A stretch of DNA of 64,000 nucleotides, from the NCBI GenBank assembly GCA_017620975.1, contig JAGAUD010000030.1, forward strand, positions 10,560-74,559. The letters are read 5' to 3'. Position numbers and translations under genes: made by a program. Position 1 is the stretch's first letter; the number at the start of each line of letters is the position of its first letter. Positions 37,412 through 53,181 of this stretch are shown here, piece by piece. Source of the DNA: Lachnospiraceae bacterium (lineage in GTDB: Bacteria > Bacillota_A > Clostridia > Lachnospirales > Lachnospiraceae). Below the pieces are notes generated by a model, which saw nothing but the letters and a program-made list of their open reading frames with translations, did no database searches and was not told where the DNA came from.

Positions 37412-38359
37412 ATGAAGTTTGAAAAGATGAGTGAGAAGAAGACAAAAACAAAGTCCGGCGGTCTGACCTTAAAGTATCTGAAGAAGAATTGGCCGTTGTA
37501 CGCTATGCTGGCGATTCCCATGATTTACATATTTGTATTCAAATATGCACCTATGGCCGGTTTGGTTGTTGCCTTTAAAAAGTATAATATTTTTAAAGGA
37601 ATATGGGAGAGTGACTGGGTAGGATTTAAGTACTTTGAAGAGGCATTCACTACATCAGAATTCTGGAGGTCAGTCAAGAATACGCTGGTATTGAATTTAG
37701 GACAGCTTTTGATCTGTTTCCCGTTCCCCATTTTCCTTGCTATCGTTATGAGTGAAATGTGTTTTAAGAAGGTAACGAAGTTTACACAGACCATTCTTTA
37801 CATACCGCACTTTATGTCAAATGTAATTATTGTTGGTATCATGTATCAGGTGTTCGGTGCTTCCGGCGCCATCAACAATGCATTGAGTGCATTGGGAATT
37901 GGTCAGATTGGTTTCTTAAGTAATTCCCAACTGTGGCGTGGTGTTTACTGGTTCTCCGGTCTTTGGGAAGGTACCGGATATGGTATGATCGTATATTTAG
38001 CGGCCATTGCCGGTATCAATACGGAGTTGTATGATGCGGCTTATATGGATGGTGCAGGAAGATGGAAACGTATCTGGCATGTGACTCTTCCACAGATCAG
38101 ATCCACCATTGTTACCATTTTGGTTATGGATATCGGCCGAATCCTGAATATCAGCTTCGAAAAGCCTTACTTGATGGGCAATGCTCTTACAAGAGATGTG
38201 TCACAGGTTATCAGTACCTATGTATATTCTGTAGGTTTGCAGGCAGGTCGTTATGACTATGCGACTGCGGTAGGTCTGTTCCAGTCAGTTGTTGCACTGG
38301 TGATGGTATTGACTGCTAACTGGGCAGCGAAGAAACTCGGAGAGGAGGGTATCATGTAA
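37412..38359 (+). CDS. sugar ABC transporter permease (LplB-like)
   Basis: A permease of about 315 residues for a carbohydrate importer of the LplB/MalF type. After a basic, Lys-rich N-terminus come six membrane helices. KYAPMAGLVVAFKKYNIFKG is typical of LplB proteins, and the coupling loop is around ELYDAAYMDGAGRWKRIWHVTLP. The start could be 37412 or 37427 (MSEKK); both are near an AAAGG. Its stop overlaps the next ATG by one base. The partner genes are the second permease and a lipoprotein binding protein; no ATPase gene is in the operon, so a shared MsmK-type ATPase must serve it. Confidence 0.9.
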   Translation: MKFEKMSEKKTKTKSGGLTLKYLKKNWPLYAMLAIPMIYIFVFKYAPMAGLVVAFKKYNIFKGIWESDWVGFKYFEEAFTTSEFWRSVKNTLVLNLGQLLICFPFPIFLAIVMSEMCFKKVTKFTQTILYIPHFMSNVIIVGIMYQVFGASGAINNALSALGIGQIGFLSNSQLWRGVYWFSGLWEGTGYGMIVYLAAIAGINTELYDAAYMDGAGRWKRIWHVTLPQIRSTIVTILVMDIGRILNISFEKPYLMGNALTRDVSQVISTYVYSVGLQAGRYDYATAVGLFQSVVALVMVLTANWAAKKLGEEGIM

Positions 38360-39231
38360 TGAATTCAATATATAGTAAGAAATGGAGCCTGTTCCAGATA
38401 GTTATGCTGATTGTCTGCATTGCTGCACTGGCAATCACTTTAGTTCCCATATTGAACATTTTAGCCTTGTCCTTCAGTGGTAAGAATGCTATTGCAAAGG
38501 GCATCGTGGGTATCTGGCCGGTGGAATTTACATTGGATGCTTATAAGAATGTGTTTGGCAATGGCAGTATTATATATTCCATGTTTTATTCATTGGCATT
38601 GACCCTTGTGGTTGGTTTTTCTACCACCTTCCTGACCATTTTGGCAGCATATCCGCTTTCAAAGCTCAACCTGAAGGGTAATCACTTCTTTATGACATTG
38701 ATTACCATTACTATGTATATCAGTGCCGGTACGGTGCCGGGATACTTGCTGGTGAAAAATTTAGGATTGATAAACACAATATGGGCCTTAATCCTGCCGG
38801 GTATGATCAGCCCCTTCCAACTGATCATCTTGAGAACCTTCTTCATGGGCATTAACAAGTCATTGTTTGAAGCAGCGTACATGGACGGATGCGGTGAGTG
38901 GGGATGTCTGTTTAAGATTGCAGTTCCGCTGTCAAAACCATCTATTGCAACTATCACGCTGTTCAGCTGTGTATCCAGATGGAATGGTGTAACGGATGTA
39001 TTGTATTATATTGACAATCCGAAACTGTATACCTTGCAGTACCAGTTAAAACTGCTGTTAGATTCCTTCCATATCGAATACACACCGGAAGAAATGGCAG
39101 ATATGACCATAGCTGCAGAAAACGTAAAATCTGCAACCATTATTTTTTCTATGATACCCATCCTGATTGTATATCCTTTTGTACAGAAGCACTTTACAAA
39201 GGGTGTTAACATTGGTGGTGTAAAGGAATAA
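38359..39231 (+). CDS. carbohydrate ABC transporter permease (YtcP-like)
   Basis: A 290-residue second permease of the importer. Six helices, with an N-terminal VPILNILALSFSGK region, a periplasmic-type segment before AYPLSKLNLKG and the coupling loop EAAYMDGCGEWGCLFKIAVPLSKP. The sequence ends GVNIGGVKE, a hallmark of the YtcP subfamily (usually KGVMIGAVKG). Its start codon overlaps the stop of the first permease by one base. Together they form the pore for an oligosaccharide. Confidence 0.92.
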   Translation: MNSIYSKKWSLFQIVMLIVCIAALAITLVPILNILALSFSGKNAIAKGIVGIWPVEFTLDAYKNVFGNGSIIYSMFYSLALTLVVGFSTTFLTILAAYPLSKLNLKGNHFFMTLITITMYISAGTVPGYLLVKNLGLINTIWALILPGMISPFQLIILRTFFMGINKSLFEAAYMDGCGEWGCLFKIAVPLSKPSIATITLFSCVSRWNGVTDVLYYIDNPKLYTLQYQLKLLLDSFHIEYTPEEMADMTIAAENVKSATIIFSMIPILIVYPFVQKHFTKGVNIGGVKE

Positions 39232-39362
39232 TTATTTGTTACTAGAAAGCTGTAAAATTAAAATAAATATAGTATAGGGCTGTTCGTGTAGGCAGGCCGG
39301 ACAGCTTTCCTGTCAGCGGGAATATATGTGGCCCTATGCTCTTTAAAAATGGAGGTAAAAAA

Positions 39363-40958
39363 ATGAAAAAGCGTTATTTGAAACTTTGCTCAATGCTTCT
39401 GGCTACTGCTATGGTAATGACTGCATGTGGCAGCACAAAGACCAATCAGGAAAGTAAAGACCCTGCAAAGTCAAGCGAAGCAACTACACAAAAGTCAAGC
39501 GAAGCCGCTGAAAAAGAAGAACCAAAGGAAATTGTAGACATTACCGTTATGGTTTATGACCGTGGTCATGAGTACACCAACGGCAATTCCCTGACCGACA
39601 ACGAGTTTACTCGTTGGATCAATGAAAACTTAGAGCCTCAGGGTGTGCATGTAACATACGTCCCGGTTCCGCGTTCCGGAGCAGATGACAAGGTAAACCT
39701 GATGCTGACAGGCGGTACGGCTCCTGATATCATCAGAACTTACGATTTGGCTCGTGTTCAGGGCTATGCTATTGATGGCGGTCTGGCAGATCTGACAGAT
39801 TACATGGATATGTTAAGCGATGACTATCTGTCAAAGGCACTTCTTGAGGTTGGCCAGATTGAAGGCAGACAGTATGGTCTTCCGGGTGTATATTCTTATG
39901 GACAGAAGTCTCATGAGATGTTCCTTCGTCAGGATCTTGTAGAAGGCGCAGGCAAGGAAATGCCTACCAATAAGGCTGAATTGATCGATGTATTATATGC
40001 AATCAAGGAAAAGTATCCGGATATCATTCCTATGGGTATGGGCGGTAAAAATACCAATGGTAACTACACCAACTTCATCCTTTCTTACACCAGTCAGGCA
40101 AATGAAAGAGACAACTACATCTATGATGCTACCTTTACAAAGGTATTAAAGCCGGGTCATAAAGATGGTTTGAAGCAGTTAAATCAGTTTGTATTAGATG
40201 GTATCATCGATGCTAATTTCGTATTAGATACTGATAATGCAAAGTACGATGAAAATGTTGCAAATGGTAACTATGCACTTGTTATGGATGGTTCTGCGGA
40301 TTGTGTCGACGCAGCATATGAAACGGCATCTGATCCTAACTATCACATGGTGGAAGTAAACTGTCTGGAAAACTTAGACGGCAGCTATGATGTTCCCTCT
40401 TCAGGTACATGGGATCATATGGTATATGTTCCTGCAACTGCAGAAGACAGAATCGAAGCTGTTATGACTTACTTGGCATTTGTTTCTGATGAAGAAAATG
40501 GTATTCAAATCAGAAACGGTCTGGAAAATCTTGGTTATGAAGTAGTAGATGGTAAGATTATTGGATTCTCAAGAGATCAGAGAATTGCAAATGGTACCAG
40601 CTCTAACCCTACTGACAATGGTTTCTTATGGGGTAACTTTGAATATGCAACAAAGTCATTCCTTGAAGATTATATGGCATCCAATCCGGAAGTTCCTCAG
40701 GATGCAGCAGAGTCAAGAGTTGAGCACAGATATAGTGGATTCTATCATACTGTAGCACCTACCGATCCTCTGGAAGCAGATCAGTATTCTGCATTGCTGA
40801 ACGAGCTGATCGTAGAATTCGTGTTCAAATGTATGTGTGCACCGGAAGGTCAGTTTGACAAGGTTTACGAAGAAGGCTATCAGCTTCTGTTAGACAACCA
40901 TTTACAGGATCTGTTAGACGAACGTGCAGCTTGGTACGATGCTAACGTTGCAAAATAA
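39363..40958 (+). CDS. extracellular solute-binding lipoprotein of the sugar importer (LplA-like)
   Basis: A 531-residue lipoprotein. A basic N-terminus and hydrophobic stretch lead to the lipobox around VMTAC with Cys22 as the lipid-modified residue, then a Ser/Lys/Glu-rich linker and a large family 1-type binding domain (LNLMLTGGTAPDIIRTYDLARV region: NLMLTGGTAPD, then a SGTWDHMVYVPAT segment). The length fits LplA-type proteins that bind oligosaccharides. The start at 39363 has ATGGAGG at ideal spacing. A hairpin at 40968 lies between it and the enzyme genes, which would lower downstream expression. It is the only secreted protein of the locus. Confidence 0.92.
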   Translation: MKKRYLKLCSMLLATAMVMTACGSTKTNQESKDPAKSSEATTQKSSEAAEKEEPKEIVDITVMVYDRGHEYTNGNSLTDNEFTRWINENLEPQGVHVTYVPVPRSGADDKVNLMLTGGTAPDIIRTYDLARVQGYAIDGGLADLTDYMDMLSDDYLSKALLEVGQIEGRQYGLPGVYSYGQKSHEMFLRQDLVEGAGKEMPTNKAELIDVLYAIKEKYPDIIPMGMGGKNTNGNYTNFILSYTSQANERDNYIYDATFTKVLKPGHKDGLKQLNQFVLDGIIDANFVLDTDNAKYDENVANGNYALVMDGSADCVDAAYETASDPNYHMVEVNCLENLDGSYDVPSSGTWDHMVYVPATAEDRIEAVMTYLAFVSDEENGIQIRNGLENLGYEVVDGKIIGFSRDQRIANGTSSNPTDNGFLWGNFEYATKSFLEDYMASNPEVPQDAAESRVEHRYSGFYHTVAPTDPLEADQYSALLNELIVEFVFKCMCAPEGQFDKVYEEGYQLLLDNHLQDLLDERAAWYDANVAK

Positions 40959-40967
40959 GTAAAATGA

Positions 40968-41003
40968 AACTCCGGCGATAAACTCCCGCCGGAGTTGATT
41001 TTT
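40968..41003 (+). terminator. hairpin terminator/attenuator between importer and enzyme genes
   Basis: AACTCCGGCG and CGCCGGAGTT form a perfect stem around a 9-base loop, followed by GATTTTTT. Because genes on the same strand follow closely without an obvious new promoter, it may act as a partial terminator that sets a high ratio of binding protein to enzymes. Confidence 0.8.
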
Positions 41004-41036
41004 TAGGGGAATATCCCCAATAGGAGTAAGTTTGGA

Positions 41037-41969
41037 ATGAGAAAGACAACATTTATACAGGATGAAAACCCATTGTGGTTAAAAGGTAATCTGCATTGCC
41101 ACAGTACTACATCAGACGGTGCATTGAGTCCGGAGGTGCTGGCCGAAGGATTTGCCGGCAAGGGATATGATTTTCTGGCAATCACAGATCATGACATTTA
41201 TAAAAGTTATGATGAGATTAGCAACGATAAAATCCTGCTGATTCCCGGAGTGGAAGTAACAGGAGCTGTCACAGAAGACAAGAATGGTCATTTTTGTGTG
41301 CTGCAAAAGGGGAAGATAAGTGATTTTGAGCAGGGTGAGAGATTTCAGGTGGATACGCGTGAGAAGCTGTTGGATTTTCTGGAAAATCATCACGATAAAT
41401 ATCTGATTACATTAAATCATCCGTATTGGTCCCTGCTTGAATGGGAAGAAGTAATAGATCTGCCTCACCTGACAGCTTTGGAGATATACAATCATGCCAC
41501 ACAGATGGGAACATTTGTGGGAGAATCGGCACATTTCTGGAACACCTTACTTCGCAAAGGCAAGTCCATGTGGGGGATTGCGGCGGATGACAATCATAAC
41601 AAAGTAAAGCAGATTCCGGGGTGGCCCTTTGACTGCGTGGTCAGCGATGTCTTTGGTGGCTGGGTATGCGTGAAAGCAAAGGACAGATCCCGGGAAGCAA
41701 TCATGGAAGCGTTGGAATCTGGAAGCTTTTATGCAAGCACCGGACCAAAGATTACTGATTTCTATGTAGAAGGAGATACCTTCCATGTAAGTTGTTCTCC
41801 CTGCCAGCGAATCGTTGTCAGTGGAGACCGGGGATATTTTAAGAGAAGCCTTGGCTTTGGAGTGACTGAATTTACAGGCCGCCTGAATGGTAAGGAAAAA
41901 TTTATTCGTGTGCAGTGTGCGGATGAAAAAGGTGGAGTGGCATATTCCAATCCGATTTATATTGATTGA
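41037..41969 (+). CDS. PHP-domain phosphoesterase, copy 1
   Basis: A 310-residue protein with an N-terminal PHP domain: LKGNLHCHSTTSDG gives His20, His22 and Asp27, and FLAITDHDIY gives Asp51 and His52; later ligands are in LNHPYWS and DDNHN. The PHP fold holds two or three metals and hydrolyses phosphate esters or phosphodiesters. The C-terminal third (VSCSPCQRIVVSGDRGYFKR) is a beta-rich domain shared with copy 2. No signal peptide. Its place right after a sugar importer suggests it acts on an imported phosphorylated sugar or glycan. The exact substrate is unknown. Confidence 0.85.
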   Translation: MRKTTFIQDENPLWLKGNLHCHSTTSDGALSPEVLAEGFAGKGYDFLAITDHDIYKSYDEISNDKILLIPGVEVTGAVTEDKNGHFCVLQKGKISDFEQGERFQVDTREKLLDFLENHHDKYLITLNHPYWSLLEWEEVIDLPHLTALEIYNHATQMGTFVGESAHFWNTLLRKGKSMWGIAADDNHNKVKQIPGWPFDCVVSDVFGGWVCVKAKDRSREAIMEALESGSFYASTGPKITDFYVEGDTFHVSCSPCQRIVVSGDRGYFKRSLGFGVTEFTGRLNGKEKFIRVQCADEKGGVAYSNPIYID

Positions 41970-42027
41970 CAGGTTCTTAAAAATTGGAGAAAATAAAAGA
42001 AAACGGCTTGAAAGGAGAAATGCTTAC

Positions 42028-42951
42028 ATGAAAAGAACTATTTTTTTACAGGATGAAAATGCAATCTGGTTAAAGGGGAACCTTCACAGTCACAGCACTA
42101 TGTCAGACGGTAAGTTGACACCGGAAGAAATGAAAGAAGCTTATAAGCATCATGGCTATGATTTTTTAGTGATCAGTGACCATGACAGATACACAGATAC
42201 AAGACATATGTCAGAAGACAATTTTACCATGGTTCAAGGATTTGAATTATATGGTAATGCAACAGATGAAAAAGATATTCATATACATCTTTTATGGGAT
42301 GATAACTTTGACGAATTTCAGCATGGACAGTATATCCATCTTCCGGAACGAACAGGGAAGGCAACCAAAGCATTTTGTGAGGAAATGAAAGCCAAGGGTG
42401 CTTATATTATGTTGAACCATCCACATTGGTCCATGTTAACCAGTGCGGAAGTGGAAGTGGATAGTTTCTATGATGCTGTTGAACTGATAAATTATGAAAC
42501 AGAGTGGCTGGAAAATGTGGGTGACGGTACCGTTTTCTGGACAGAAATGCTTTACAAAGGTGCCAGACTTTGGGGCGGCGGCAGCGATGACAATCACAAT
42601 GGACAGGAAGTAGACTCTATGTACAGTGGCTCCTTCGGCGGCTGGACAGTGGTAAAGGCGAAAGACCGCTCGCGCAATGCTATTATCGAGGCTTTGAAGA
42701 CAGGCAGTTTCTATACATCTACCGGTCCTGCCATTTACGATTTCTATGTAGAAGATGATGAGGTGCATGTGGTATGTTCGCCCTGTGAACGTATTTACAT
42801 CGGCGGCCAGCACAGATGTCATCAGCGCAAGATTGGCAGACATGTGACCGAGTTTGTGACCAAATTAAAAGGAAAAGAGAAATTTGTCCGTGCAGAGGTT
42901 ATGGACGCAGCAGGACGCAGCGCATACACCAACCCTATCTGGCTGGACTAA
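42028..42951 (+). CDS. PHP-domain phosphoesterase, copy 2
   Basis: A 307-residue paralog of the preceding gene with the same layout: His20 and His22 in LKGNLHSHSTMSDG, Asp51 and His52 in LVISDHDRY, then LNHPHWS and DDNHNG. The two differ mainly in a central stretch (residues 70-115), which here has an extra His-rich segment (KDIHIHLLWDDN). I start at 42028 (AAAGGAG upstream); the longer frame from 41887 overlaps copy 1. Such tandem diverged copies suggest two related substrates or two steps of one pathway. Cytoplasmic, no signal peptide. Confidence 0.85.
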   Translation: MKRTIFLQDENAIWLKGNLHSHSTMSDGKLTPEEMKEAYKHHGYDFLVISDHDRYTDTRHMSEDNFTMVQGFELYGNATDEKDIHIHLLWDDNFDEFQHGQYIHLPERTGKATKAFCEEMKAKGAYIMLNHPHWSMLTSAEVEVDSFYDAVELINYETEWLENVGDGTVFWTEMLYKGARLWGGGSDDNHNGQEVDSMYSGSFGGWTVVKAKDRSRNAIIEALKTGSFYTSTGPAIYDFYVEDDEVHVVCSPCERIYIGGQHRCHQRKIGRHVTEFVTKLKGKEKFVRAEVMDAAGRSAYTNPIWLD

Positions 42952-42963
42952 ATTAAGGAGATT

Positions 42964-45171
42964 ATGGCATTGATCAAGGCATTAATAAATGACATTTTAT
43001 ATCCATCGGATCAATTCACGCCCATACCTTTTTGGTTCTTTAATGACTTGCCGGATCTTGACCGAATCAGAAAACAACTGCAGGATTATGTGGAAAAAGG
43101 GGTAAATGGTATCGTGCTTCATCCCCGGATCGGGGTTCCGAAAGAAATACCGTATTTATCTGAAAAATATTTTGAGGCGATTCGTTTTATTGTAAAAACT
43201 GCTGATGAATTACAGATGAAGGTTGTATTGTACGATGAAGCCATGTACCCTTCCGGTTCTGCTCATGGTATGGTGGTGGCAGAAAATCCGGAATATGCGT
43301 CTAAGGGCATCCACCTTGTACAGGCAGGGGAGGATGCAGCCGGTGAGGTGATCGTAGCATTCAAAGATGGAAGTCGTTTGGTGTACGGATTCACCGGAGG
43401 GACCATTCGCGGCATTCATTTTGGTGAGGATGATGGAGAAGACGGAGCACCGAAATCGGCGGATATCCTGAACCCTGATGCGGTGGATGCCTTTATCCGG
43501 ATGACACATGACCGCTATTATGAGGAATTAAAAGAGTACTTTGGTAGTACAGTGATTGCCTTCTTTACAGATGAGCCCGGTGCGTTGGGAAGAAGAGCAG
43601 GACGTTTTCGTGAGTGGATTCCGGGACTGGATAAAGAAATTCTAAAAGAGGGCGGTAGTCTGGAGGAGCTTAAGGCGCTCTTTACCAAAGAGAAAAATGC
43701 AGGTACTGAGATCTATCATAGATTGATCAAAAAGTATTATAGAGAGATCTTCTATAGAAGATTGTCCGAATGGTGTCAGAACCACAATATTCTTTTGATG
43801 GGACATCCGGAAGCCAGCGATGATGTGGAAGAACAACTGTATTTTCAGATTCCGGGGCAGGATCTGATTCTGAGAAGAGTGGCACCGGAGAGCGGAGGTC
43901 TTACGGAGTTTGATTCTGTACAGGCAAAGTTGGCGGCTGATATTGCAAGGCATCTGGGTCGCAGAAGAAATGCCAATGAGTGTTTCGGTGTATGTTACCG
44001 TAACCGGATTCCGTGGTATTTCACAGCGGGGGATATGAAGTGGTATATAGACTGGCTTGGCATACGCGGAGTGAATCTGTTTGTGCCCCATGCTTTTTAC
44101 TACAGTGTGGAAGGCGCACGCAAGGATGAACGTCCGCCGGATGTGGGTCCCAACAATATCTGGTGGCCTCATTATCGCAAGATTTCCGACTATATAAAGC
44201 GGCTGTCCTATTTGATGACAGATTCGGTAAATGGTGCCGGGGTGGCAGTGTTGTGTGATAATAATCAGGTGCCTTATAAAGAGCTTGCGCTATTGTTTGA
44301 AGAGCAGGTGGAATTTAATTATTTGCCTATTGCTCTGCTTTCGGAATGTAAAATACAGGATGGAAAGCTTTGTATCAGAGAGTATCAGTATGAGGCCGTG
44401 TTGAACGTGACGAATCCGGCATGGGATGGGCTTGTACGAACAGTGACTGTGGAAGAAACGGATAATGCCGGTTTGAAATTATTTCATGATGCGGAAAGTC
44501 TGATTGCAGAAGGCAGCTATAAGACCATACATACAAACACCGCGTGCAAAGATTTGCGTGTATCTAAACTTCATAAAAATGGTGTGGAAATGTTTTTGTT
44601 TTCCAACGAAGGAAATCAAACGATTCAGACCAAGGTGAGTCTTTCTGCAGATAAGGCTGACAGCGCTTTGGCGTCAGAACATCATAAAGAGGGTATGAAA
44701 GCAGCTGTGTATGTGGATCTGTGGCGAGGGGAAGCAAGGATGAAAACCTGTGCACAAGATGGCTTATATGAGATCCTGTTGCAACCACGAGAGACAATGC
44801 TGATTGTTTTACAGCAGAATTTTGCGGATAAGACTGTAGTTGAAATGCTGCCCAAAGCAGATGCGGAAGTATTTTTAGGAGATTTTACAGATAAATTTAC
44901 TCTCATACAGAAGGAACAGAATCGTGCAGTATATATAATGAATTATGAAGCGGCTGATATTACCGGAAGGGAAGCTTTTCAGGTGCAGGCAGAAGAAATG
45001 GTGGAATGTTTCTGCAATGGTGAGTTAGCAGATGTGGCACTGTGGAGTCCTCACAGGCTGCGTATCGGCAAGTTTTTAAGAGAAGGAAACAACGAACTGA
45101 AGTTGATCATTACCGGCAGTGCTGCCAATATTTACTGTGATGTAGAGATTCCGTTCGGACTGGGAGTTTAA
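42964..45171 (+). CDS. large TIM-barrel glycoside hydrolase-like protein, family not assigned
   Basis: A 735-residue protein without signal peptide. The start PIPFWFFNDLPDLDRIRKQL, then VNGIVLHPRIGVP and VVLYDEAMYPSGSAHG, is seen in a group of predicted glycoside hydrolases distantly resembling GH106-type barrels. Candidate catalytic acids are Glu92 (YDEAMYPSG) and Glu204 (FFTDEPG). After the barrel, from about residue 450, there is a Rossmann-like and then beta-rich C-terminal part. I cannot name the reaction. Its place between two PHP proteins and a GH127-like enzyme supports a role in glycan breakdown in the cytoplasm. SD AAGGAG. Confidence 0.7.
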   Translation: MALIKALINDILYPSDQFTPIPFWFFNDLPDLDRIRKQLQDYVEKGVNGIVLHPRIGVPKEIPYLSEKYFEAIRFIVKTADELQMKVVLYDEAMYPSGSAHGMVVAENPEYASKGIHLVQAGEDAAGEVIVAFKDGSRLVYGFTGGTIRGIHFGEDDGEDGAPKSADILNPDAVDAFIRMTHDRYYEELKEYFGSTVIAFFTDEPGALGRRAGRFREWIPGLDKEILKEGGSLEELKALFTKEKNAGTEIYHRLIKKYYREIFYRRLSEWCQNHNILLMGHPEASDDVEEQLYFQIPGQDLILRRVAPESGGLTEFDSVQAKLAADIARHLGRRRNANECFGVCYRNRIPWYFTAGDMKWYIDWLGIRGVNLFVPHAFYYSVEGARKDERPPDVGPNNIWWPHYRKISDYIKRLSYLMTDSVNGAGVAVLCDNNQVPYKELALLFEEQVEFNYLPIALLSECKIQDGKLCIREYQYEAVLNVTNPAWDGLVRTVTVEETDNAGLKLFHDAESLIAEGSYKTIHTNTACKDLRVSKLHKNGVEMFLFSNEGNQTIQTKVSLSADKADSALASEHHKEGMKAAVYVDLWRGEARMKTCAQDGLYEILLQPRETMLIVLQQNFADKTVVEMLPKADAEVFLGDFTDKFTLIQKEQNRAVYIMNYEAADITGREAFQVQAEEMVECFCNGELADVALWSPHRLRIGKFLREGNNELKLIITGSAANIYCDVEIPFGLGV

Positions 45172-45194
45172 AATCAAAACAAGGAGAAAAATTT

Positions 45195-46907
45195 ATGAGT
45201 AAACCAAATTTTAAATCGTTTGATCCTGTAAATGTGGCAGAATTAGCAATTAATTATCTGACCAACATGACAGATGAAGCCAATGACTACTTACCATACT
45301 GGTTGGTATTGCCTCACAAGAAACCGGCCGAAGCAGCACACTGTAAGGTAGATGATGCAGAACTGGTTGCATCCTGGTTTGAGGGTATTTCCTGCGCAAG
45401 AGAGGTGGCAGGAACCGAAGTGGGTGCAGAGCATCAGGCTGCATTCAGAAGACATTTGATGCAGTCTTGGGGAGAGCATGGACTGCGCTATCATAAAAAA
45501 TACCCATGGACCCATACCCTTCATGCATCCTTCCATGAGATGGGATATGTACTTTCCGCTTTGAACAGATGTCTGGTATTAGACCCTAATGATGCAGAAG
45601 CAGAGGAACATGCAGCAAATTTAGTAAAAGGTATGCTGGGGGTTGCCATTCAGAGAAAGACTAGGGTGTTCTGGTCCGGTGACAGCCGGGAACCTCTGAC
45701 AGTTTACGAATTCCCTAACGATATTTATCTGCAGGATGGCGGCTTTAACATGAGCTATCATACCGGCCGTGGTGAGCAGCCGATCCGAAACGGTGTTATC
45801 GTGTACCCGCTGGTAAAGAGATACGAATTGACCGGTGATGAAAATGCATTAGAACTGGCAAAAGGTTATGTAAATTATCTGCTGGGACATTCCAGATACT
45901 TCTCTTACAATATGGAATTTTTCGGACATGTACATTCTTCCCTTTGGGTAGCATCCGGTATGATCATGATGGGCCGTTTAACCAATGAGCCATTCTATAT
46001 TAAGAAGGGTAAAGAAATATACGATTTCGTACGCACCAAGACTTCAAGCTTCGGCTGGGTTCCGGAGTTTATGAAGTGGAAGCCTATGATTGAAGAAAAC
46101 TGTGAAACCTGTTGTATCAAGGACTTGCTGGAATGTGCACATGAACTGGTGCTGTCCGGTTATGAAGAATACTGGGCAGATATCAACTCCTTCGTGCGTA
46201 ATCAGTTAGTGGAAAATCAGGTAACACATACCGGTTATGTGGTGACTGATGATAATAAAGAAGATGATAAGGCTGCCGGTATTACCTATAAGCGTCTGAA
46301 CAAGAGAATGATCGGCGGATTCTCAGGCGGTTCGCAGCCTAACTCTATGAGTCTGACCAAGTTCCGTTCGATCGCAGGATGTTGCGCAGGCTTTGCGCCC
46401 ATCGGTCTGTGGAGAGCATGGACAGTTTCTATCGGAGAAACAGAAGAAAGAGTGACTGTGAATATTCCTCTGAACAAGGATGTTCAGAAAGCAAAGGTTA
46501 GAAGCTTTTATCCCAATGAAGGCCGCATGGAAGTAACTGCCACGTCAGATACAGAAGTGGCATTCAGAACCTATGATTGGATGGGGGAAGCAGAAGATAT
46601 CAAAGTGCTGGTAAACGGTGTAGCGGCAGAAGCTGTAAAAGAAGGTGCACTTTTGGTTGTAAGTGCAAAGGCCGGTGATGTAGTGACATTAGAACATGCT
46701 GTTGAGACCGTGACTATTCCTGAGGAGGTAAGAGGTGCAGAGTACCAGATTGTTTGGAGAGGTCCGGATGTAGTGGATATCCTGCCACACGGTGAACATA
46801 TGAGACTGTATCAGAGAAATTTAGATGTGCCTTATGACGAACCTACTCCGGATGAAGTGGAATTTACCGGTGCTTCCGATTATGGCCCGACACAGCAGAA
46901 GAGATAA
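45195..46907 (+). CDS. GH127/GH146-like six-hairpin glycosidase (DUF1680-type)
   Basis: A 570-residue (alpha/alpha)6-barrel protein. In GH127 beta-L-arabinofuranosidases a zinc is held by a Glu-x-Cys pair and a Cys-Cys pair, with one Cys as nucleophile. Here Glu304 and Cys306 occur in NCETCC and Cys396-Cys397 in IAGCCAGFAP, so the metal-thiol site seems to be kept. The rest is diverged, and an extra Cys307 follows. The C-terminal 160 residues are beta sandwich-like. No signal peptide. Beta-L-arabinofuranosidase or another furanosidase activity is possible but uncertain. Confidence 0.72.
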   Translation: MSKPNFKSFDPVNVAELAINYLTNMTDEANDYLPYWLVLPHKKPAEAAHCKVDDAELVASWFEGISCAREVAGTEVGAEHQAAFRRHLMQSWGEHGLRYHKKYPWTHTLHASFHEMGYVLSALNRCLVLDPNDAEAEEHAANLVKGMLGVAIQRKTRVFWSGDSREPLTVYEFPNDIYLQDGGFNMSYHTGRGEQPIRNGVIVYPLVKRYELTGDENALELAKGYVNYLLGHSRYFSYNMEFFGHVHSSLWVASGMIMMGRLTNEPFYIKKGKEIYDFVRTKTSSFGWVPEFMKWKPMIEENCETCCIKDLLECAHELVLSGYEEYWADINSFVRNQLVENQVTHTGYVVTDDNKEDDKAAGITYKRLNKRMIGGFSGGSQPNSMSLTKFRSIAGCCAGFAPIGLWRAWTVSIGETEERVTVNIPLNKDVQKAKVRSFYPNEGRMEVTATSDTEVAFRTYDWMGEAEDIKVLVNGVAAEAVKEGALLVVSAKAGDVVTLEHAVETVTIPEEVRGAEYQIVWRGPDVVDILPHGEHMRLYQRNLDVPYDEPTPDEVEFTGASDYGPTQQKR

Positions 46908-46944
46908 AGTCCGAATTGAAAGCAGGAGGTTGAGGAAGATAAAT

Positions 46945-47919
46945 ATGATCAGAAAAATAACAAATGACCGTCCTTTTAAGATTTTAGGCTTTACAGATAC
47001 CCATTTAGATGATTATGCAGACCGTTTTGAGGTGACTCTGAAGCTGATGGCGGAGACTGTGGAGACGGAGAAGCCGGATTTAGTCGTATTTGTAGGGGAT
47101 AATGTGACCGGCGGGGACAACAGAGCGCGGGCGAAAACGTTTCAAAAGACGATGACCCAGTTGAAAATCCCTTGGGCACCTGTGCTGGGCAATCATGAAG
47201 GGGACAATCCTAAGTCAATGCTTCGCAGTGAGATGGTGGCAGAGTTTCGTAAGTCGCCTTATTGTCTGGTGCCGGAAAAGAAACCTATGCTGGCAGACGG
47301 GACAGAGGTGTTCGGAGAGACCAACTTTGTGATTCCTCTGAAAAATGAGGAGGGTAAGGAAGTATATAAGCTGATCTTTCTGGACTGCGGTCCGGATACT
47401 ACCCCAAAGGATCTGGCAAGATACGGTATCATTACCCGGAAGAAGAGTCCGGACGGATATCTGAAGGATAATCAGATCGCGTGGTACAGGGAGCAGGTCA
47501 GAGAAGACGAATGCCCGTCCATGGTATTCTGCCATGTGCCTCTTACGGAATTTATAGAAGCCTATGAAAAAGGCGAACGTGTGGCAGGTATCAACTACGA
47601 AGGTACCGGTGGTTCCCCATATAACAGCGGAATGTTTGATGCTATGCTGGAAGAAGGTAAGACCAAGATATTTGTGGTAGGGCATGATCATGTGAACGAC
47701 TCCAAGGTTCTGTACAAAGGGATTCTGCTTATGTACAACCGTATGAGCGGTATGTCTTCCTACAATACGATCAGCAAAAAAGTGGCAGACAAACTGATGC
47801 AGGGGGCAACGATTTATTATATTGATGCGGAAGGTCAGGTAACCTTTGATGATGTGATTTACGAGGACAGATATCCCCAGTATCATGATGAAATTTACAG
47901 CGTTATCCGAAAGGAATAG
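46945..47919 (+). CDS. calcineurin-like metallophosphoesterase
   Basis: A 324-residue cytoplasmic metallophosphoesterase. All motifs of the fold are present: Asp18 and His20 in FTDTHLDD, FVGDNVTGG with Asp52, GNHEGDN with Asn83 and His84, FCHVP, and VVGHDHVND. It resembles the PhoD-like/DCR2 group. These enzymes hydrolyse phosphomonoesters or phosphodiesters. SD GAGGAAG precedes ATG 46945; the frame from 46825 overlaps the previous gene and is not used. It is the third phosphoesterase-type gene of the operon. Confidence 0.9.
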   Translation: MIRKITNDRPFKILGFTDTHLDDYADRFEVTLKLMAETVETEKPDLVVFVGDNVTGGDNRARAKTFQKTMTQLKIPWAPVLGNHEGDNPKSMLRSEMVAEFRKSPYCLVPEKKPMLADGTEVFGETNFVIPLKNEEGKEVYKLIFLDCGPDTTPKDLARYGIITRKKSPDGYLKDNQIAWYREQVREDECPSMVFCHVPLTEFIEAYEKGERVAGINYEGTGGSPYNSGMFDAMLEEGKTKIFVVGHDHVNDSKVLYKGILLMYNRMSGMSSYNTISKKVADKLMQGATIYYIDAEGQVTFDDVIYEDRYPQYHDEIYSVIRKE

Positions 47920-47923
47920 ATAT

Positions 47924-48676
47924 ATGAAAATAGTAACTTTTAATGTGCGTTTTAATAATCCAAATGACGGAGAATATTCTTTTGAACATCGTAAAGAGGA
48001 AATTATCCGCCGCATTCAGGCAGAGCAGCCGGACGTGATCGGATTTCAGGAAATCAGAGACGATATGCAGCCCTGGCTGGAGGAACATATGCCGGAATAT
48101 GTCTGGGTAGGCCATGGTCGTACCACAGAACTGACCGGAGAGCATTGCCCGGTGGTTTACCGCAAGGACAAGTTTAAATTGAGAAACTTCCAGTGCTTCT
48201 GGCTGTCAGATACACCCAACGTACCGGGCAGTAAGTTTGAAGGACAGGGGTATCATCCGAGAATCTGCAACATGCTTCTTTTGTACAGCATTACAGATAA
48301 AAAGACCATGTGCGTGTTCAACACACATTTGTGCAACGAAAGTGCAGATGCTCGCAAAAAAGCTATGGAGCTGATGCTTGCAAAGGGGGATGAATTCCTT
48401 GCAGGGGAGCAGATGCCGATCTTTATTATGGGGGACTTTAATGCATTGCCCGGCTGTCCGGAGCTTGCTGCCATGGAAAACAGAGCGGATTATAAAGATG
48501 TTACAGGCCATATTCCTGTTACATTCCACGGTTTTTTCAAGAAGCCGACGGAGAAGATCGATTACATTTACGTAAACAACATGGTGAAGGTGATCAGCTG
48601 CGATACGTGGGAAAGTGAGGAAGGACATATTTGCCTGTCTGATCATTTCCCCATTGGACTGGTTTGTGAGATATAA
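47924..48676 (+). CDS. endonuclease/exonuclease/phosphatase (EEP) fold protein
   Basis: A 250-residue EEP-fold phosphoesterase, close in length to the single-domain members seen in many bacterial glycan loci. Motifs are FNVRFNN with Asn7, FQEIRDD with Glu43, FNTHLCNES, MGDFNALPG and SDHFPIGL with the catalytic Asp-His pair. Family members include nucleases, sphingomyelinase and inositol-phosphate phosphatases, so a phosphodiester or phosphomonoester of the imported ligand is the likely substrate. No signal peptide. It starts four bases after the previous stop and ends the operon; a terminator follows. Confidence 0.9.
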   Translation: MKIVTFNVRFNNPNDGEYSFEHRKEEIIRRIQAEQPDVIGFQEIRDDMQPWLEEHMPEYVWVGHGRTTELTGEHCPVVYRKDKFKLRNFQCFWLSDTPNVPGSKFEGQGYHPRICNMLLLYSITDKKTMCVFNTHLCNESADARKKAMELMLAKGDEFLAGEQMPIFIMGDFNALPGCPELAAMENRADYKDVTGHIPVTFHGFFKKPTEKIDYIYVNNMVKVISCDTWESEEGHICLSDHFPIGLVCEI

Positions 48677-48681
48677 AAAAG

Positions 48682-48739: not shown

Positions 48740-50872
48740 TTAAGTGTATCGCTGCAGTCTGATTACTGCGCTTTCATCTGCATTCAGTGTAAATTCCAAT
48801 ACACTGTCTTTCAGTTGAGCGATTGGATTACCCAGGATGAGCATGCACTCAATGTAGGAACGATCCAGATGAATACTTCCTTTTGCAGCTTTTTTACTGC
48901 TGTTGATCAGAATCAGTGCATCTGCGGAGTATTGTTCAGCATCTGTTTTCAGATAACTGACCTTGACGCCTTCAGCGGAGCAAATATTGGGACGGATTCC
49001 GGCCTGTGTACAGAGCTTCATAACAATGTTTTTCGCATCGATGCTGGAATTTGTACTGTCATTACTTATAATGTCATCGGAGATCAAGGTTCGTTTTGAA
49101 TAAGAAAGACCAAGATTTACACCGCTTAAGACAGCGCATCCATTTCCGTAATTGTTGCAGAGGATTGCCGGTGAGCCGTCCTCGTAATAATACAAAACCT
49201 GAGAGGTAACGTCACTATAATATTCAGCATGCCTGTTGCCGGCGATTTGATAACTCTTTTCGTTGTCGGAAAGGGTAACGCATTCTCTTGTGGTAAAATC
49301 AAATTCTTTACAGCCAAAAATCTCTTCAAATCCGTATCCGGGAATATGATAGGAGTGTCTGAAAGATTCATCAAAGGCACCAAAGTAAGGATCGGACAAT
49401 ATCATACCGCCTCTACGGATATATTCCTTTAATTGACCAGCCAGTTTAGGAGAGATGGCGAATGGGGAAGGGAGAATGATTAATTTATATTTTGACAGAT
49501 TTCCGGCAAATTCTTCATGAATAATATCGGTTATGATATTCTCTTCCCAAAGCATTCGGTAATAACCGCCGATACTGTCAACGGAGAATTTGTTTCCTTT
49601 TCTGTTCGTACTGTTCCAATCAGCCAGATAGGAGCGGATACTGAATACCAGAGCAACCTGAGCTTCATCATTCTGAGCGTTATTAAAGATATCCTCGTTG
49701 TCATTCAGCATTTTGCAGAGAGCGGATGCCCGTCTGGTCAGATTGGTCTCTCCACCGGCATTATCGGTGAGGGAGAAACCGCCAAATTCAGAACCATATC
49801 TTTCCTTCCTATACTGCCAGTACAACAACCCTCTTGCACCGTGGCGAATAGATTCTAAAGAGAATTTATCGAAAGTATTGTCATCAATTCGGCCTCTTTG
49901 ATTCAATCCGGTACCATTTAGCCCGGCGGTCAGCTCCGACTGCCAATATTCTTTGCCGTTTGCAGCGCATCTGGTAGCGTCACACCCAAGTCCCAGCATG
50001 CTGCAGTCGCCGGCAGATTGAGGGAATGCGCTGTATCCCCATTTGTCGAAAATCTGTGCATTTTTCCAGTCGTCGAAGGCCATTCCGCCTAATTGGGCAC
50101 AGGTTGCTGCACCGCCGCCCCATGCATGTGCAATGACCGGTTTGGTGTCACAACTTTTGATGATATCAGACCGAAATTTGATTTCTTCGGCTACATTGTC
50201 CATGTTGAATAATCTGAAATCGGCAGAATCGCTGTAAGAAGCAGTCCATCTTGGGGGTCTGACTTCATCAAAGGAAGAATAACCATATCCCCACGCATCA
50301 TTTAGTGCATGTATGTTCTGATATTTCTTCTGTAACCATACTTGAAACTTTTTGATGGATTCCGGACAGTAGCAGTAGATTCCGGAGGGAGTTTTGGTGA
50401 AATCAATCCATTGATGAGGTTCATTCATGGGTTCATAAAAAGCTACATTCTTGTATTTTTTCGTTTCTTCGATGACGCCTCGTATCAGACGTTCTTCCAT
50501 ATCCCTTACTTCCGGGTGGTCATAGCACAGACCCGGCCAGCCACCACCGGGGGTATTGGGTCGTACAGTCGGCTCAAAGGGCAGATGCTCATCGGAAATG
50601 TAAAAATATTTGGCATATTTCTTTACAGCCCACGCTGGACATGCATGCAGATGAAACAATAAGCCTACATTTAAATCATATTTTTGGGCACAGTTTAGGA
50701 AAGCAGATATGTATTCGTAGTCGATTTCGCCTTCTGCCTTTTCAATATGGCTCCAGACCATCCATGCCCGAATGGTGTTAAAGCCATATTTTTTCATGTT
50801 TTCCATATCTTGTTCCCACTGGTCTTTATGGGGGGTGATGCCTCTTAGATATTGGGTACCAAAAGTAAACAT
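48740..50872 (-). CDS. GH42-type glycosidase (beta-galactosidase-like)
   Basis: A 710-residue enzyme of the GH42 clan. The TIM barrel carries the acid/base Glu151 in FYEPMNEPHQW and the nucleophile Glu313 in YWQSELTAG, so it should be an active retaining glycosidase. A trimerisation-type middle domain and a C-terminal beta domain follow. GH42 enzymes cut beta-1,3, 1,4 and 1,6 galactosides or other beta-linked sugars; the exact linkage is not predictable. No signal peptide. SD AAGGAG precedes the ATG. Divergent from an AraC gene that probably controls it. Confidence 0.88.
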   Translation of the reverse strand: MFTFGTQYLRGITPHKDQWEQDMENMKKYGFNTIRAWMVWSHIEKAEGEIDYEYISAFLNCAQKYDLNVGLLFHLHACPAWAVKKYAKYFYISDEHLPFEPTVRPNTPGGGWPGLCYDHPEVRDMEERLIRGVIEETKKYKNVAFYEPMNEPHQWIDFTKTPSGIYCYCPESIKKFQVWLQKKYQNIHALNDAWGYGYSSFDEVRPPRWTASYSDSADFRLFNMDNVAEEIKFRSDIIKSCDTKPVIAHAWGGGAATCAQLGGMAFDDWKNAQIFDKWGYSAFPQSAGDCSMLGLGCDATRCAANGKEYWQSELTAGLNGTGLNQRGRIDDNTFDKFSLESIRHGARGLLYWQYRKERYGSEFGGFSLTDNAGGETNLTRRASALCKMLNDNEDIFNNAQNDEAQVALVFSIRSYLADWNSTNRKGNKFSVDSIGGYYRMLWEENIITDIIHEEFAGNLSKYKLIILPSPFAISPKLAGQLKEYIRRGGMILSDPYFGAFDESFRHSYHIPGYGFEEIFGCKEFDFTTRECVTLSDNEKSYQIAGNRHAEYYSDVTSQVLYYYEDGSPAILCNNYGNGCAVLSGVNLGLSYSKRTLISDDIISNDSTNSSIDAKNIVMKLCTQAGIRPNICSAEGVKVSYLKTDAEQYSADALILINSSKKAAKGSIHLDRSYIECMLILGNPIAQLKDSVLEFTLNADESAVIRLQRYT

Positions 50873-50953: not shown

Positions 50954-50990
50954 TATGCAAAAACTCAGATATATTGATGAATATGCAAAG
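50954..50990. promoter_or_regulatory. direct repeats TATGCAAA between GH42 and AraC gene 3
   Basis: TATGCAAAA (50954) and TATGCAAAG (50982) are direct repeats 28 bases apart in the divergent space. AraC-family dimers often bind direct repeats. The 166-base gap shows no clear consensus promoter for either gene. Confidence 0.4.
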
Positions 50991-51037
50991 AAATGTTAAA
51001 ATCAACTATATATTACAAAATCAAGGGATGTGGAAAA

Positions 51038-51856
51038 ATGGGTAAATCTGCGCGGATGATAAAACGCAGTATAACAGCAAAAAGTGAAATTGTGTTTGAG
51101 CGAAAGCTTTTAGATAAGCCCAGCAGTGTCCATTGGCACAATTTTTGTGAGCTGGACATCATTGTGTCCGGATATGGAACTACCTTTATCAACGGAAGTG
51201 AATATCTGTGCAAGCCTGGAATGATGGTTTTTATGTCACCATCTGATTTCCATGATTACCGTGCAAATGAACTGGAAATATTCAATATCCAGTTTTCGGA
51301 GGAGAGTGTGGACAGTCATATTTTGCATGCACTTATTAACCTGAACAGCAGAATGGTTTGCATGGGGGAAAAGGACAGGAGTATTCTGAGGAATATATGT
51401 GATTTAGTGGAGGGGACAGCTCTGGGTAAGGTCTATAGGAACCTGTATCTTAAAAGAATGGTGGAAAGTATACTGATTCTGTTTTTACAGAATGTAGACA
51501 GCAAAAAGGAAGGAGTATTCAGGGCTGAGCCGGACATTATTCAAGAAATTGTTATTTATATCAATGCTCATTTTGCAGAGAATCTTACACTTAAGGATAT
51601 TGCGAAAGCTTTTCATTTAAATGAAAATTACCTATGCTGCCTGTTCAGACAGCATGTGGGAGAGGGATATAAAAGTTACCTGCGTAAGATAAAGCTGGAG
51701 CATGCAGAAAAACTGATTTTATTTACGAATATGTCAATCACAGAAATTGCGCTTAGCAGTGGATATAATACACAGTCCCATTTTAACAGGGAATTTAAAA
51801 ATATGTTTCATGTAACCCCAAGCAAAATGAGACAGACGAGAGAAAGGTCTTTGTAA
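51038..51856 (+). CDS. AraC family transcriptional regulator (third, distinct)
   Basis: A 272-residue regulator with an N-terminal cupin sensor (VHWHNFCELDIIVSGYGTTFINGSEY, read in parts) and two HTH motifs (LTLKDIAKAFHLNENYLCCLFRQHVG; SITEIALSSGYNTQSHFNREFKNMFHVTPSKMR, shown as regions). It is not closely related to the other two AraC proteins here. The ATG at 51038 is preceded by GGGATGTGG; the upstream frame from 50993 lacks a normal start. It likely controls the divergent GH42 gene and the GH125 gene that follows in the same direction. Confidence 0.88.
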   Translation: MGKSARMIKRSITAKSEIVFERKLLDKPSSVHWHNFCELDIIVSGYGTTFINGSEYLCKPGMMVFMSPSDFHDYRANELEIFNIQFSEESVDSHILHALINLNSRMVCMGEKDRSILRNICDLVEGTALGKVYRNLYLKRMVESILILFLQNVDSKKEGVFRAEPDIIQEIVIYINAHFAENLTLKDIAKAFHLNENYLCCLFRQHVGEGYKSYLRKIKLEHAEKLILFTNMSITEIALSSGYNTQSHFNREFKNMFHVTPSKMRQTRERSL

Positions 51857-51903
51857 ATGCCGCTTTTGAGACAATCGGCATAGATGAAAGGAGTGTTGAA
51901 GGA

Positions 51904-53181
51904 ATGAACATACCAAAAGCGATTAATGAAAGAATAGAAATATATTCCCGGAAATTGGCAGGCAACCCTAAACTTCAGAAGATGTATCGGAATTGTTATC
52001 TGAGTACCTGGGAAACGGCTTTGCAGAAATGTGAGGACGGAACCTACTTTGTGCTGACAGGAGACATTCCTGCCATGTGGCTTCGAGACTCGGCGGCACA
52101 GGTGACCCATTATATTCCTTTGTCCGGGGATGCGCAGGTGGCGGAAGTGATCGAAGGGGTGATCAGAAGGCAATTTATGTACATTGAGATCGACCCTTAT
52201 GCCAATGCATTCAATCAGGAATCCAATGACAAGGGGCATGTAGATGACATACCCAAGAAAGGACCCTGGGTGTGGGAAAGGAAATATGAGGTGGATTCTC
52301 TGTGTTATCCTATCAGGCTGCTGTATCTTTACTGGAAACAGACGGGTAAGGAGGAGCTGATCAAAGAGACGCTGGAAAAAGTGGTACAGATCATACTAAA
52401 AGTCTGGACTGTGGAGCAGCATCATATTGAAAAGTCTCCCTATCGTTTCACTAGACCAAATGCCAGAAAGCCCTGGAGTACTATCTACAACGAAGGAATG
52501 GGTAATCCTGTAGTATATACAGGTATGACCTGGTCCGGATTTCGCCCAAGTGATGACGGCTGCCAATATGGTTATCTGATCGCATCCGAAATGTTTGCAG
52601 TGGTAGTGCTGGGATATATGGAGGAGATGCTGACTGCTGTTTGCGGCAACACGGAACTGGCACAGAAGTGCCGCGAGCTTAGATTGCAGATTGATGCGGG
52701 CATTCAGGAGTATTCTGTGGTTGATCAGCCGGGATATGGCAAAATATATGCATGTGAAACAGATGGAATGGGCAATTATTCCATGATTGATGATGCCAAT
52801 ATCCCTAGTCTGCTTTCCATTCCTTATATCGGATATGCGGAGGCTGCAGATCCCATATATCAGAATACCAGGAAGTTTTTGCTAAGCAAGGACAATCCCT
52901 ATTATTTTGAAGGAAAATATGCAAAAGGGATCGGTTCAAGGCATACACCGGAGGATTTTGTATGGCACATGGCGTTAGTGATGCAGGGATTGACATCTGT
53001 CAATGATGAGGAAAAGAGAGAACTTTTAGAAATGATCGTTGCGACAGATGCAGATACCGGTTATCTGCACGAAGGATTTCATGTGGATGATCCCCATCAG
53101 TTTACAAGAGAATGGTTCACCTGGCCAAATGCTTTGTTTGCAGAATATGTAGAGAAATGCGTGGATGAAAAGGTGATATAA
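51904..53181 (+). CDS. GH125 exo-alpha-1,6-mannosidase (metal-independent alpha-mannosidase, DUF1237)
   Basis: A 425-residue protein of family GH125. The stretch LTGDIPAMWLRDSAAQV (52-68) and the NQESNDKGH segment are diagnostic; candidate catalytic residues are the Asp in SGFRPSDDG and the Glu in the C-terminal EGFHVDD region. Known members are inverting alpha-1,6-mannosidases that trim mannose from host N-glycans or yeast mannan. No signal peptide, so it acts on imported oligosaccharide. It lies 47 bases after the third AraC gene with SD GAAGGA. It is the clearest pointer to a mannose-containing ligand for the locus. Confidence 0.92.
   Translation: MNIPKAINERIEIYSRKLAGNPKLQKMYRNCYLSTWETALQKCEDGTYFVLTGDIPAMWLRDSAAQVTHYIPLSGDAQVAEVIEGVIRRQFMYIEIDPYANAFNQESNDKGHVDDIPKKGPWVWERKYEVDSLCYPIRLLYLYWKQTGKEELIKETLEKVVQIILKVWTVEQHHIEKSPYRFTRPNARKPWSTIYNEGMGNPVVYTGMTWSGFRPSDDGCQYGYLIASEMFAVVVLGYMEEMLTAVCGNTELAQKCRELRLQIDAGIQEYSVVDQPGYGKIYACETDGMGNYSMIDDANIPSLLSIPYIGYAEAADPIYQNTRKFLLSKDNPYYFEGKYAKGIGSRHTPEDFVWHMALVMQGLTSVNDEEKRELLEMIVATDADTGYLHEGFHVDDPHQFTREWFTWPNALFAEYVEKCVDEKVI

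What the first reader, a model, noticed from the sequence alone, without database searches (positions are those of the whole stretch)
37412..53181. Glycan locus with four phosphoesterase-type proteins: a possible undescribed pathway for a phosphorylated or phosphodiester glycan
Between the sugar importer and hisS lie two PHP-domain proteins, a calcineurin-like metallophosphoesterase and an EEP-fold phosphoesterase, interleaved with a GH-like barrel, a GH127-like enzyme, GH42 and GH125; GH63-like and GH4 genes flank it. Apart from the binding lipoprotein (and the membrane permeases), I see no signal peptide on any enzyme, so breakdown must be cytoplasmic. Carbohydrate loci normally carry few or no phosphoesterases. 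Known facts: GH125 removes alpha-1,6-mannose; PHP, MPE and EEP folds cut phosphate esters. Inference: the imported ligand carries phosphate, for example phosphomannan or a glycerophospho- or inositol-linked mannoside.
Basis: partly seen in the sequence, partly recalled or inferred. Interest (0 to 1): 0.78.

Follow-up and report, generated by a model that had tools for sequence, protein, structure and literature searches.

The report
Sugar-import locus with four phosphoesterase-type enzymes
A bacterium carries a gene cluster that imports an unidentified sugar chain and pairs sugar-cutting enzymes with four enzymes of phosphate-removing folds; relatives of several of these genes travel together in other bacteria, which suggests, without proving it, that the imported sugar carries phosphate.

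Summary
The genes are as described: two permeases and a binding lipoprotein, then, past a terminator-like hairpin, six same-strand enzyme genes (two PHP, GH106-like, GH127-like, metallophosphoesterase MPE, EEP); GH42 and GH125 follow. Relatives travel together above chance. In 250 genomes of another family the GH127-like protein occurs in 15; all 15 carry this MPE, against 14 of the other 235. MPE and PHP each lie within 10 kb of it in 7 of 15 genomes. L110 repeats permeases, GH127-like, PHP, GH125, EEP and MPE within about 10 kb. But EEP and GH125 are optional partners, the PHP proteins are CehA/McbA-type, a family named for carbamate-ester hydrolases, and PHP relatives sit with GH88 (10 of 32 loci) more often than with GH125 (4 of 32). 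A phosphate-bearing anionic glycan is the best reading (0.42); phosphomannan itself is unproven. Precedents: an EEP mannosyl-6-phosphatase, an EEP GlcNAc phosphodiesterase, phosphatases in yeast-mannan breakdown. New variant of a known kind.

The parts
37328..38359 (+). ABC importer permease A (probable start 37412)
   Evidence: PF00528 52.9 bits
38359..39231 (+). ABC importer permease B
   Evidence: PF00528 56.4 bits; overlaps permA by 1 bp
39336..40958 (+). solute-binding lipoprotein
   Evidence: PF13416 53.4 bits; N-terminal hydrophobic stretch followed by a Cys
40968..41005 (+). terminator-like hairpin followed by a U run, between importer and enzyme genes
   Evidence: -27.2 kcal/mol for the 78-bp gap, z -3.41
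41037..41969 (+). PHP1, CehA/McbA-type metallohydrolase
   Evidence: NCBIfam NF038032 119.4 bits, cut-off 80; model pLDDT 96.3, best fold match PHP protein 3e38; H20 H22 D27 H52 E73 H85 H128 D185 H187 invariant in 30 aligned sequences
42028..42951 (+). PHP2, paralogue of PHP1 (46% identity)
   Evidence: NF038032 105.5 bits; identity; longest ORF starts at 41887
42964..45171 (+). GH106-like protein (distant)
   Evidence: PF17132 23.9 bits, below the cut-off of 29; model pLDDT 77.3, best PDB folds 6q2f, 5mqm, 5mwk
45195..46907 (+). GH127-like protein ('GHx570')
   Evidence: 8 of 12 aligned sequences match PF07944, best 4.5e-6; invariant E301-x-C303 and C396-C397
46945..47919 (+). calcineurin-like metallophosphoesterase (MPE), no TM
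   Evidence: PF00149 60.6 bits; D18 H20 D52 N83 H84 H197 H247 H249 invariant in 20 aligned sequences
47924..48676 (+). EEP-fold phosphoesterase
   Evidence: PF03372 70.7 bits; PDB relatives 3g6s, 3l1w, 4c1r (mannosyl-6-phosphatase), 3mpr
48740..50872 (-). GH42
   Evidence: PF02449 137.6 bits; convergent to the enzyme genes
50993..51856 (+). AraC-type regulator
   Evidence: PF12833 83.6 bits
51904..53181 (+). GH125 (alpha-1,6-mannosidase family)
   Evidence: PF06824 489.6 bits
32980..34671 (-). GH63/MGH1-like glycosidase, flanking; relatives sit near the GH127-like gene elsewhere
   Evidence: PF22422 183.3 bits; GH63-like ORFs in L105, L108, L109, L112, L113, 5 of the 14 GHx570 loci L102-L115
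31552..32958 (-). GH4, flanking
   Evidence: PF02056 185 bits

Best explanation
An importer-coupled catabolic locus for an anionic oligosaccharide that carries phosphate ester or diester groups. The ABC importer takes the oligosaccharide up whole (inferred). In the cytoplasm one or more of the metal-dependent enzymes (MPE, EEP, probably PHP1/PHP2) remove or split the phosphate substituent, which would otherwise block the exo-glycosidases (inferred); then the GH127-like, GH106-like, GH125, GH63, GH42 and GH4 enzymes take sugars off one by one (families shown, substrates inferred). Shown: gene order, family assignments, conserved metal-site residues, and linkage of relatives of these genes in other genomes. 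Inferred: phosphate on the ligand, the order of steps, and co-regulation of importer, enzyme block and flanking units.
For: Six enzyme genes in tight same-strand order (gaps 4-58 bp). Genome co-occurrence of MPE with the GH127-like gene: 15 of 15 against 14 of 235, Fisher p 1.7e-16 (1 of 15 in the smaller control). Within 10 kb of the GH127-like gene: MPE 7 of 16 places used (expected 0.11), PHP 7 of 45 (0.30), EEP 3 of 52 (0.36). MPE within 10 kb of PHP in 13 of 36 matches over 40 PHP-bearing genomes (expected 0.35), GH125 in 4 of 20 (0.21). L110 repeats permeases, GH127-like, PHP, GH125, EEP and MPE. In 5 of 12 MPE-bearing loci the MPE has an N-terminal hydrophobic segment, suggesting that it acts outside the cell there, on the glycan and not on internal metabolites. 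Putative PHP and MPE metal residues invariant. Precedents: EEP mannosyl-6-phosphatase 4c1r; EEP phosphodiesterase that strips phosphorylcholine from GlcNAc, its subfamily mostly from Clostridium species (PMC10704324 abstract and passages); phosphate removed by phosphatases before the backbone is cut to GH125 substrates in alpha-mannan breakdown (PMC10154615 passage).
Against: No substrate data. A terminator-like hairpin separates importer and enzyme genes, so importer and phosphoesterases may be transcribed apart. PHP proteins are CehA/McbA-type, whose characterised members cut carbamate esters. The four loci with close binding proteins among the 80 PHP loci (L001, L009, L011, L013) all carry a gene of the GH88 cluster, pointing to uronic-acid glycans; the window has no GH88 among the 40 proteins scanned. 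EEP and GH125 are not constant partners; 68 of 80 PHP loci show no MPE hit. The MPE proteins closest to the window's (L008, L012, L015; 17 of 20 rows of A2) lack the hydrophobic segment. The EEP is nearer to 3g6s (105 bits, function unknown) than to 4c1r (61 bits, residues 3-174 only). Genomes in the counts are related, so the p values overstate independence; I assume that repeated draws of 250 were the same genomes (handles agree).
Confidence: 0.42

Rival explanations
1. The importer handles a uronic-acid or otherwise decorated anionic glycan of pectin or exopolysaccharide type, and the PHP (and perhaps MPE) proteins are esterases of non-phosphate groups (acyl or carbamate esters). Phosphate plays no part.
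For: PHP1/2 pass the CehA/McbA model, whose named enzymes cut carbamate esters. The GH88 cluster is present in 10 of the 32 PHP loci clustered, an RGL11-like cluster in 6, and two clusters of large proteins without a Pfam hit in 5 and 4 (one representative of each scanned). In the window a GH106-like, a GH127-like and a GH42 protein fit plant or rhamnosyl/arabinosyl-type glycans.
Against: MPE and EEP folds act on phosphate esters in the characterised cases that I know of (recalled). A type I phosphodiesterase cluster (PF01663) is in 4 of the 10 GH88 loci and in L014, so those loci too carry extra phosphoesterases. GH125, GH63 and GH38 near some GH127-like genes point to alpha-mannosides or alpha-glucosides. 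No GH88 or lyase among the 40 window proteins scanned.
Confidence: 0.3
2. The ligand is a small glycosyl phospho-compound from membrane lipids (glycerophospho- or inositol-phospho-mannoside, such as the head group of GPI or glycosylinositol-phosphoceramides) rather than a piece of polysaccharide.
For: Several different phosphoesterase folds plus exo-alpha-mannosidase families in one cytoplasmic set; EEP relatives include sphingomyelinases (PMC10704324 passage); phosphorylcholine on fungal glycosylinositol-phosphoceramides and phosphoethanolamine on GPI are known (PMC6994554 passages).
Against: No obvious inositol or glycerol-phosphate catabolic gene among the 40 window proteins scanned; the number of glycosidases suggests a larger glycan.
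Confidence: 0.15
3. A chance cluster: an importer beside unrelated housekeeping phosphoesterases and glycosidases, with no shared pathway.
For: EEP is common: 1-6 matches in 29 of 30 genomes. The importer is separated from the enzyme genes by a terminator-like hairpin.
Against: Tight gaps in the enzyme block; linkage of relatives far above expectation in two genome sets; L110.
Confidence: 0.06

Closest known systems
Yeast alpha-mannan breakdown of gut Bacteroides (MAN-PULs), with EEP mannosyl-6-phosphatase (PDB 4c1r; its origin from that system is recalled)
   Same: Phosphatases used together with GH125 (PMC10154615 passage); an EEP-fold member significantly similar to the window EEP (61 bits)
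   Different: GH76, GH92 and GH38 of that system were not found among the 40 window proteins scanned; here an ABC importer serves; additional PHP and MPE genes; no surface enzyme seen
GlcNAc-PDase, an EEP phosphodiesterase that removes phosphorylcholine or phosphoethanolamine from GlcNAc (PMC10704324, abstract and passages)
   Same: EEP superfamily, subfamily mostly from Clostridium species, acts on a sugar phosphodiester
   Different: Probably secreted, inactive on mannose-phosphorylcholine, no operon or gene cluster mentioned (term search); its sequence was not compared here
CehA/McbA metallohydrolases
   Same: PHP1 and PHP2 pass the family model
   Different: Known members are longer esterases of carbamate pesticides (residue numbers up to His495 and His504); here proteins of about 310 aa in a glycan locus
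GH106, GH127, GH125, GH63 families
   Same: Fold or profile matches
   Different: The window GH106-like and GH127-like proteins fall below the Pfam cut-offs, so they are relatives, not members by that test

Membership tests
CehA/McbA metallohydrolase (NF038032) | Score above the curated cut-off of 80 bits | tested here: met
   119.4 and 105.5 bits
CehA/McbA metallohydrolase (NF038032) | Carbamate-ester hydrolysis | not testable with these tools
   Needs an enzyme assay
PHP phosphoesterase | Metal-binding His/Asp/Glu set of the PHP fold (residue roles recalled) | tested here: met
   H20 H22 D27 H52 E73 H85 H128 D185 H187 invariant in 30 aligned sequences; PHP fold
Mannosyl-6-phosphatase (4c1r type) | Closest solved relative and full-length similarity | tested here: not met
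   3g6s is closer (105.4 against 61.1 bits); the 4c1r match covers residues 3-174 of 250
Calcineurin-like metallophosphoesterase | Pfam PF00149 above cut-off and metal ligands (roles recalled) | tested here: met
   60.6 against 21.5 bits; residues invariant in 20 aligned sequences
GH127 | Pfam PF07944 above cut-off | tested here: not met
   Window protein 11.8 bits against 24.9
GH127 | Zn-Cys site E-x-C ... C-C (recalled) | tested here: inconclusive
   E301-x-C303 and C396-C397 invariant in 12 sequences; no structure made
GH106 | Pfam PF17132 above cut-off | tested here: not met
   23.9 against 29 bits
GH106 | GH106 fold | tested here: met
   Best three PDB matches of the model are 6q2f, 5mqm and 5mwk (E 1.5e-24 to 1.1e-22, TM by query length 0.58-0.61), recalled as GH106; parts of the barrel have pLDDT under 50
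GH125 | Pfam PF06824 above cut-off | tested here: met
   489.6 against 23.4 bits
MAN-PUL type yeast-mannan locus | Endo-mannanase GH76 and GH92 mannosidases present | tested here: not met
   None among the 40 window proteins scanned with Pfam; not every ORF was scanned, and genes elsewhere in the genome could not be searched

The most novel reading that the evidence does not exclude
A previously undescribed, importer-based pathway of gut Clostridia-type bacteria for fungal-type phosphodiester glycans (phosphomannan or phosphogalactomannan), in which CehA/McbA-type PHP proteins and this MPE subfamily are new glycan phosphodiesterases and the GH127-like protein founds a new family acting on a furanoside or a phosphate-adjacent sugar.
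Probability: 0.18. Interest if true: 0.75.

Novelty: new variant of a known kind. Interest (0 to 1): 0.52.

Why it matters
Phosphate and zwitterionic phosphodiesters occur on glycans of fungi, protists and invertebrates (PMC6994554 passages), but knowledge of enzymes that make or remove phosphorylcholine and phosphoethanolamine groups is limited (PMC10704324 abstract). A recurring gene module that couples an importer, new glycosidase relatives and three phosphoesterase folds gives named candidates to test, and the strong MPE to GH127-like association places two uncharacterised protein families in one pathway.

Tried and rejected
Whole genome of the window: none held, so genome-wide counts for the window's own species could not be made. 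The binding protein as a marker: 2 of 299 genomes of one family, one of them the reference E. tayi genome, too rare to test linkage. The GH127-like protein in 397 genomes of that same family: 1 distant match, 27% identity. Promoter and terminator scan: promoter-like sites at chance level (37 found, 39.5 expected, sd 7.2); 22 terminator-like sites against 13.3 (sd 4.4), among them the hairpin between the binding protein and PHP1, confirmed by folding. Literature: searches (1 paper; 8; 0; 0; 141 papers, 8 listed; 0) listed no paper whose title or abstract start describes such a locus; searches were for background. Considered and dropped: pure chance clustering; phosphomannan as a firm conclusion, because PHP and importer relatives favour GH88 neighbours.
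Full report
What is there. On one strand, 37328-48676, lie nine genes: permease A, permease B, binding lipoprotein, PHP1, PHP2, a GH106-like protein, a GH127-like protein (called GHx570 here), a calcineurin-like metallophosphoesterase (MPE) and an EEP-fold protein. Gaps are -1, 104, 78, 58, 12, 23, 37 and 4 bp (the PHP2 gap corrected by hand for its start at 42028). In the 78-bp gap after the binding protein the RNA folds into a stable GC-rich hairpin followed by six U (z -3.41 against shuffles). So importer and enzyme block may be separate or partly coupled transcripts; a single operon is not shown. GH42 lies convergent downstream, then an AraC-type regulator with GH125, then hisS. Upstream are two AraC genes with a small membrane protein gene between them, a GH63/MGH1-like and a GH4 gene. 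No enzyme has a strong hydrophobic N-terminus.

Families. Both PHP proteins pass the NCBIfam CehA/McbA model; the nine residues that I recall as PHP metal ligands are invariant in 30 aligned sequences, and the predicted structure (pLDDT 96.3) matches PHP proteins best. The enzymes that gave the CehA/McbA family its name cut carbamate esters (PMC8292978, passages only). MPE has the expected metal residues. EEP matches solved structures 3g6s, 3l1w, 4c1r (deposited as mannosyl-6-phosphatase) and 3mpr, 3g6s best. The GH106-like protein scores below the Pfam cut-off, but its model (pLDDT 77.3, with low-confidence barrel parts) matches 6q2f and BT_0986 first, which I recall as GH106. GHx570 has no Pfam hit of its own at E 0.001, but 8 of 12 aligned sequences match the GH127 catalytic domain at E up to 1, best 4.5e-6, and E-x-C plus C-C residues that I recall as the GH127 zinc-cysteine site are invariant.

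Linkage, first set. By best match to window proteins, MPE is in 12 of 80 loci, GH125 in 5, EEP in 1, GH106-like in 1, GHx570 in none, and a binding protein over 100 bits in 4; many loci are short contigs. Among the 40 genomes of L001-L040 (MPE in 17 of 40), 13 of 36 MPE matches lie within 10 kb of a PHP match, expected 0.35; of the 11 strongest MPE matches (over 250 bits) 9 do, and the other two lie on contigs without a PHP match. GH125 lies within 10 kb of PHP in 4 of 20 matches, expected 0.21. These genomes were chosen for having PHP, so this tests linkage, not presence.

Linkage, second set. In 250 genomes of the family of G010, GHx570 occurs in 15, MPE in 29, GH125 in 63 over the family cut-off and in 44 over 250 bits. 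All 15 GHx570 genomes have MPE, against 14 of 235 others (Fisher 1.7e-16; a smaller control gave 1 of 15); 12 of 15 have GH125 over 250 bits, against 32 of 235 (6.8e-8). Within 10 kb of GHx570 lie MPE in 7 genomes, PHP in 7, EEP in 3, GH125 in 1; expected numbers of matches 0.11, 0.30, 0.36 and 0.08 (matches). Three of the 7 PHP are the short type next to GHx570 and four are a longer, weakly matching PHP protein. GH63-like genes lie in five of the 14 GHx570 loci cut out (L105, L108, L109, L112, L113) and a GH38 alpha-mannosidase in L105. L110 (G431) carries a GH127 gene, MPE, both permeases, GHx570, PHP, GH125 and EEP within about 14 kb, close to the window's set with strongly diverged PHP, MPE and EEP; its PHP matched no Pfam family at E 0.001 and was found by the A1 profile. 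The genomes are related to each other, so the p values are not those of independent events, and I assume that repeated draws of 250 are the same genomes.

Evidence that cuts the other way. The four loci with close binding proteins (L001, L009, L011, L013) all carry the GH88 cluster; that cluster is in 10 of the 32 PHP loci clustered, an RGL11-like cluster in 6 and a type I phosphodiesterase cluster in 5 (4 of them GH88 loci), while GH125 was in 4 by the same clustering (one representative each scanned). So the PHP and importer genes are not tied to alpha-mannosides. EEP and GH125 are optional partners. MPE relatives in 5 of 12 MPE-bearing loci have an N-terminal hydrophobic segment (L005, L006, L009, L010, L013); the three nearest to the window's (L008, L012, L015) do not, nor do 17 of the 20 rows of the MPE alignment. 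Where present it suggests that MPE acts outside, on the glycan and not on internal metabolites.

Mechanism. Most likely the importer brings in an anionic oligosaccharide, the phosphoesterases remove or split phosphate groups that block exo-enzymes, and the glycosidases finish. Yeast-mannan breakdown gives the model: phosphate is removed by phosphatases before the backbone is cut down to GH125 substrates (PMC10154615, passages). Sugar phosphodiesterases of the EEP superfamily are known from a subfamily mostly of Clostridium species (PMC10704324, abstract and passages). Mannose phosphodiesters occur in yeast, and phosphorylcholine on galactofuranose or mannose in fungi (PMC6994554, passages). 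None of this shows phosphate on the present ligand. I put the phosphate reading at 0.42, a non-phosphate decorated or uronic glycan at 0.3, a small lipid-derived phospho-glycoside at 0.15 and chance at 0.06; the remainder is none of these.

Novelty. Glycan systems with phosphatases are known, so this is a new variant of a known kind. Searches (8 of 141 listed) and 88 of open-access papers listed no description of this gene set; subscription papers were not searched. The window's taxon was not established here.

Noticed in passing
L005, L009, L010, L013, L014: PHP-linked loci carry a further phosphoesterase, a type I phosphodiesterase/nucleotide pyrophosphatase cluster (PF01663, one representative scanned), with the GH88 cluster in four of the five and the RGL11-like cluster in four of the five: a second glycan-locus type rich in phosphoesterases.
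   Followed up: partly
L011:5275-7575 and L013:12448-14307: Two clusters of large proteins (representatives 767 and 620 aa) without any Pfam match at E 0.001 recur near PHP and GH88 genes (5 and 4 loci).
   Followed up: no
window 34780-35634 and 36277-37119: Two similar AraC-type regulators flank a small membrane protein gene between the GH63/GH4 pair and the importer genes; probably a duplication.
   Followed up: no
window 8696-12546: A run of mandelate racemase/enolase-type, RraA-like, SDR and metallo-beta-lactamase-fold genes looks like a separate sugar-acid catabolic cluster.
   Followed up: no
L105:15422-16825, L113:12436-14001: A longer PHP protein (about 470-520 aa with an extra N-terminal region) stands in or near several GHx570 loci, followed by GH38 in L105.
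   Followed up: partly
window 40968-41005: Stable hairpin with a U run between the binding-protein gene and PHP1, a likely terminator or attenuator.
   Followed up: partly
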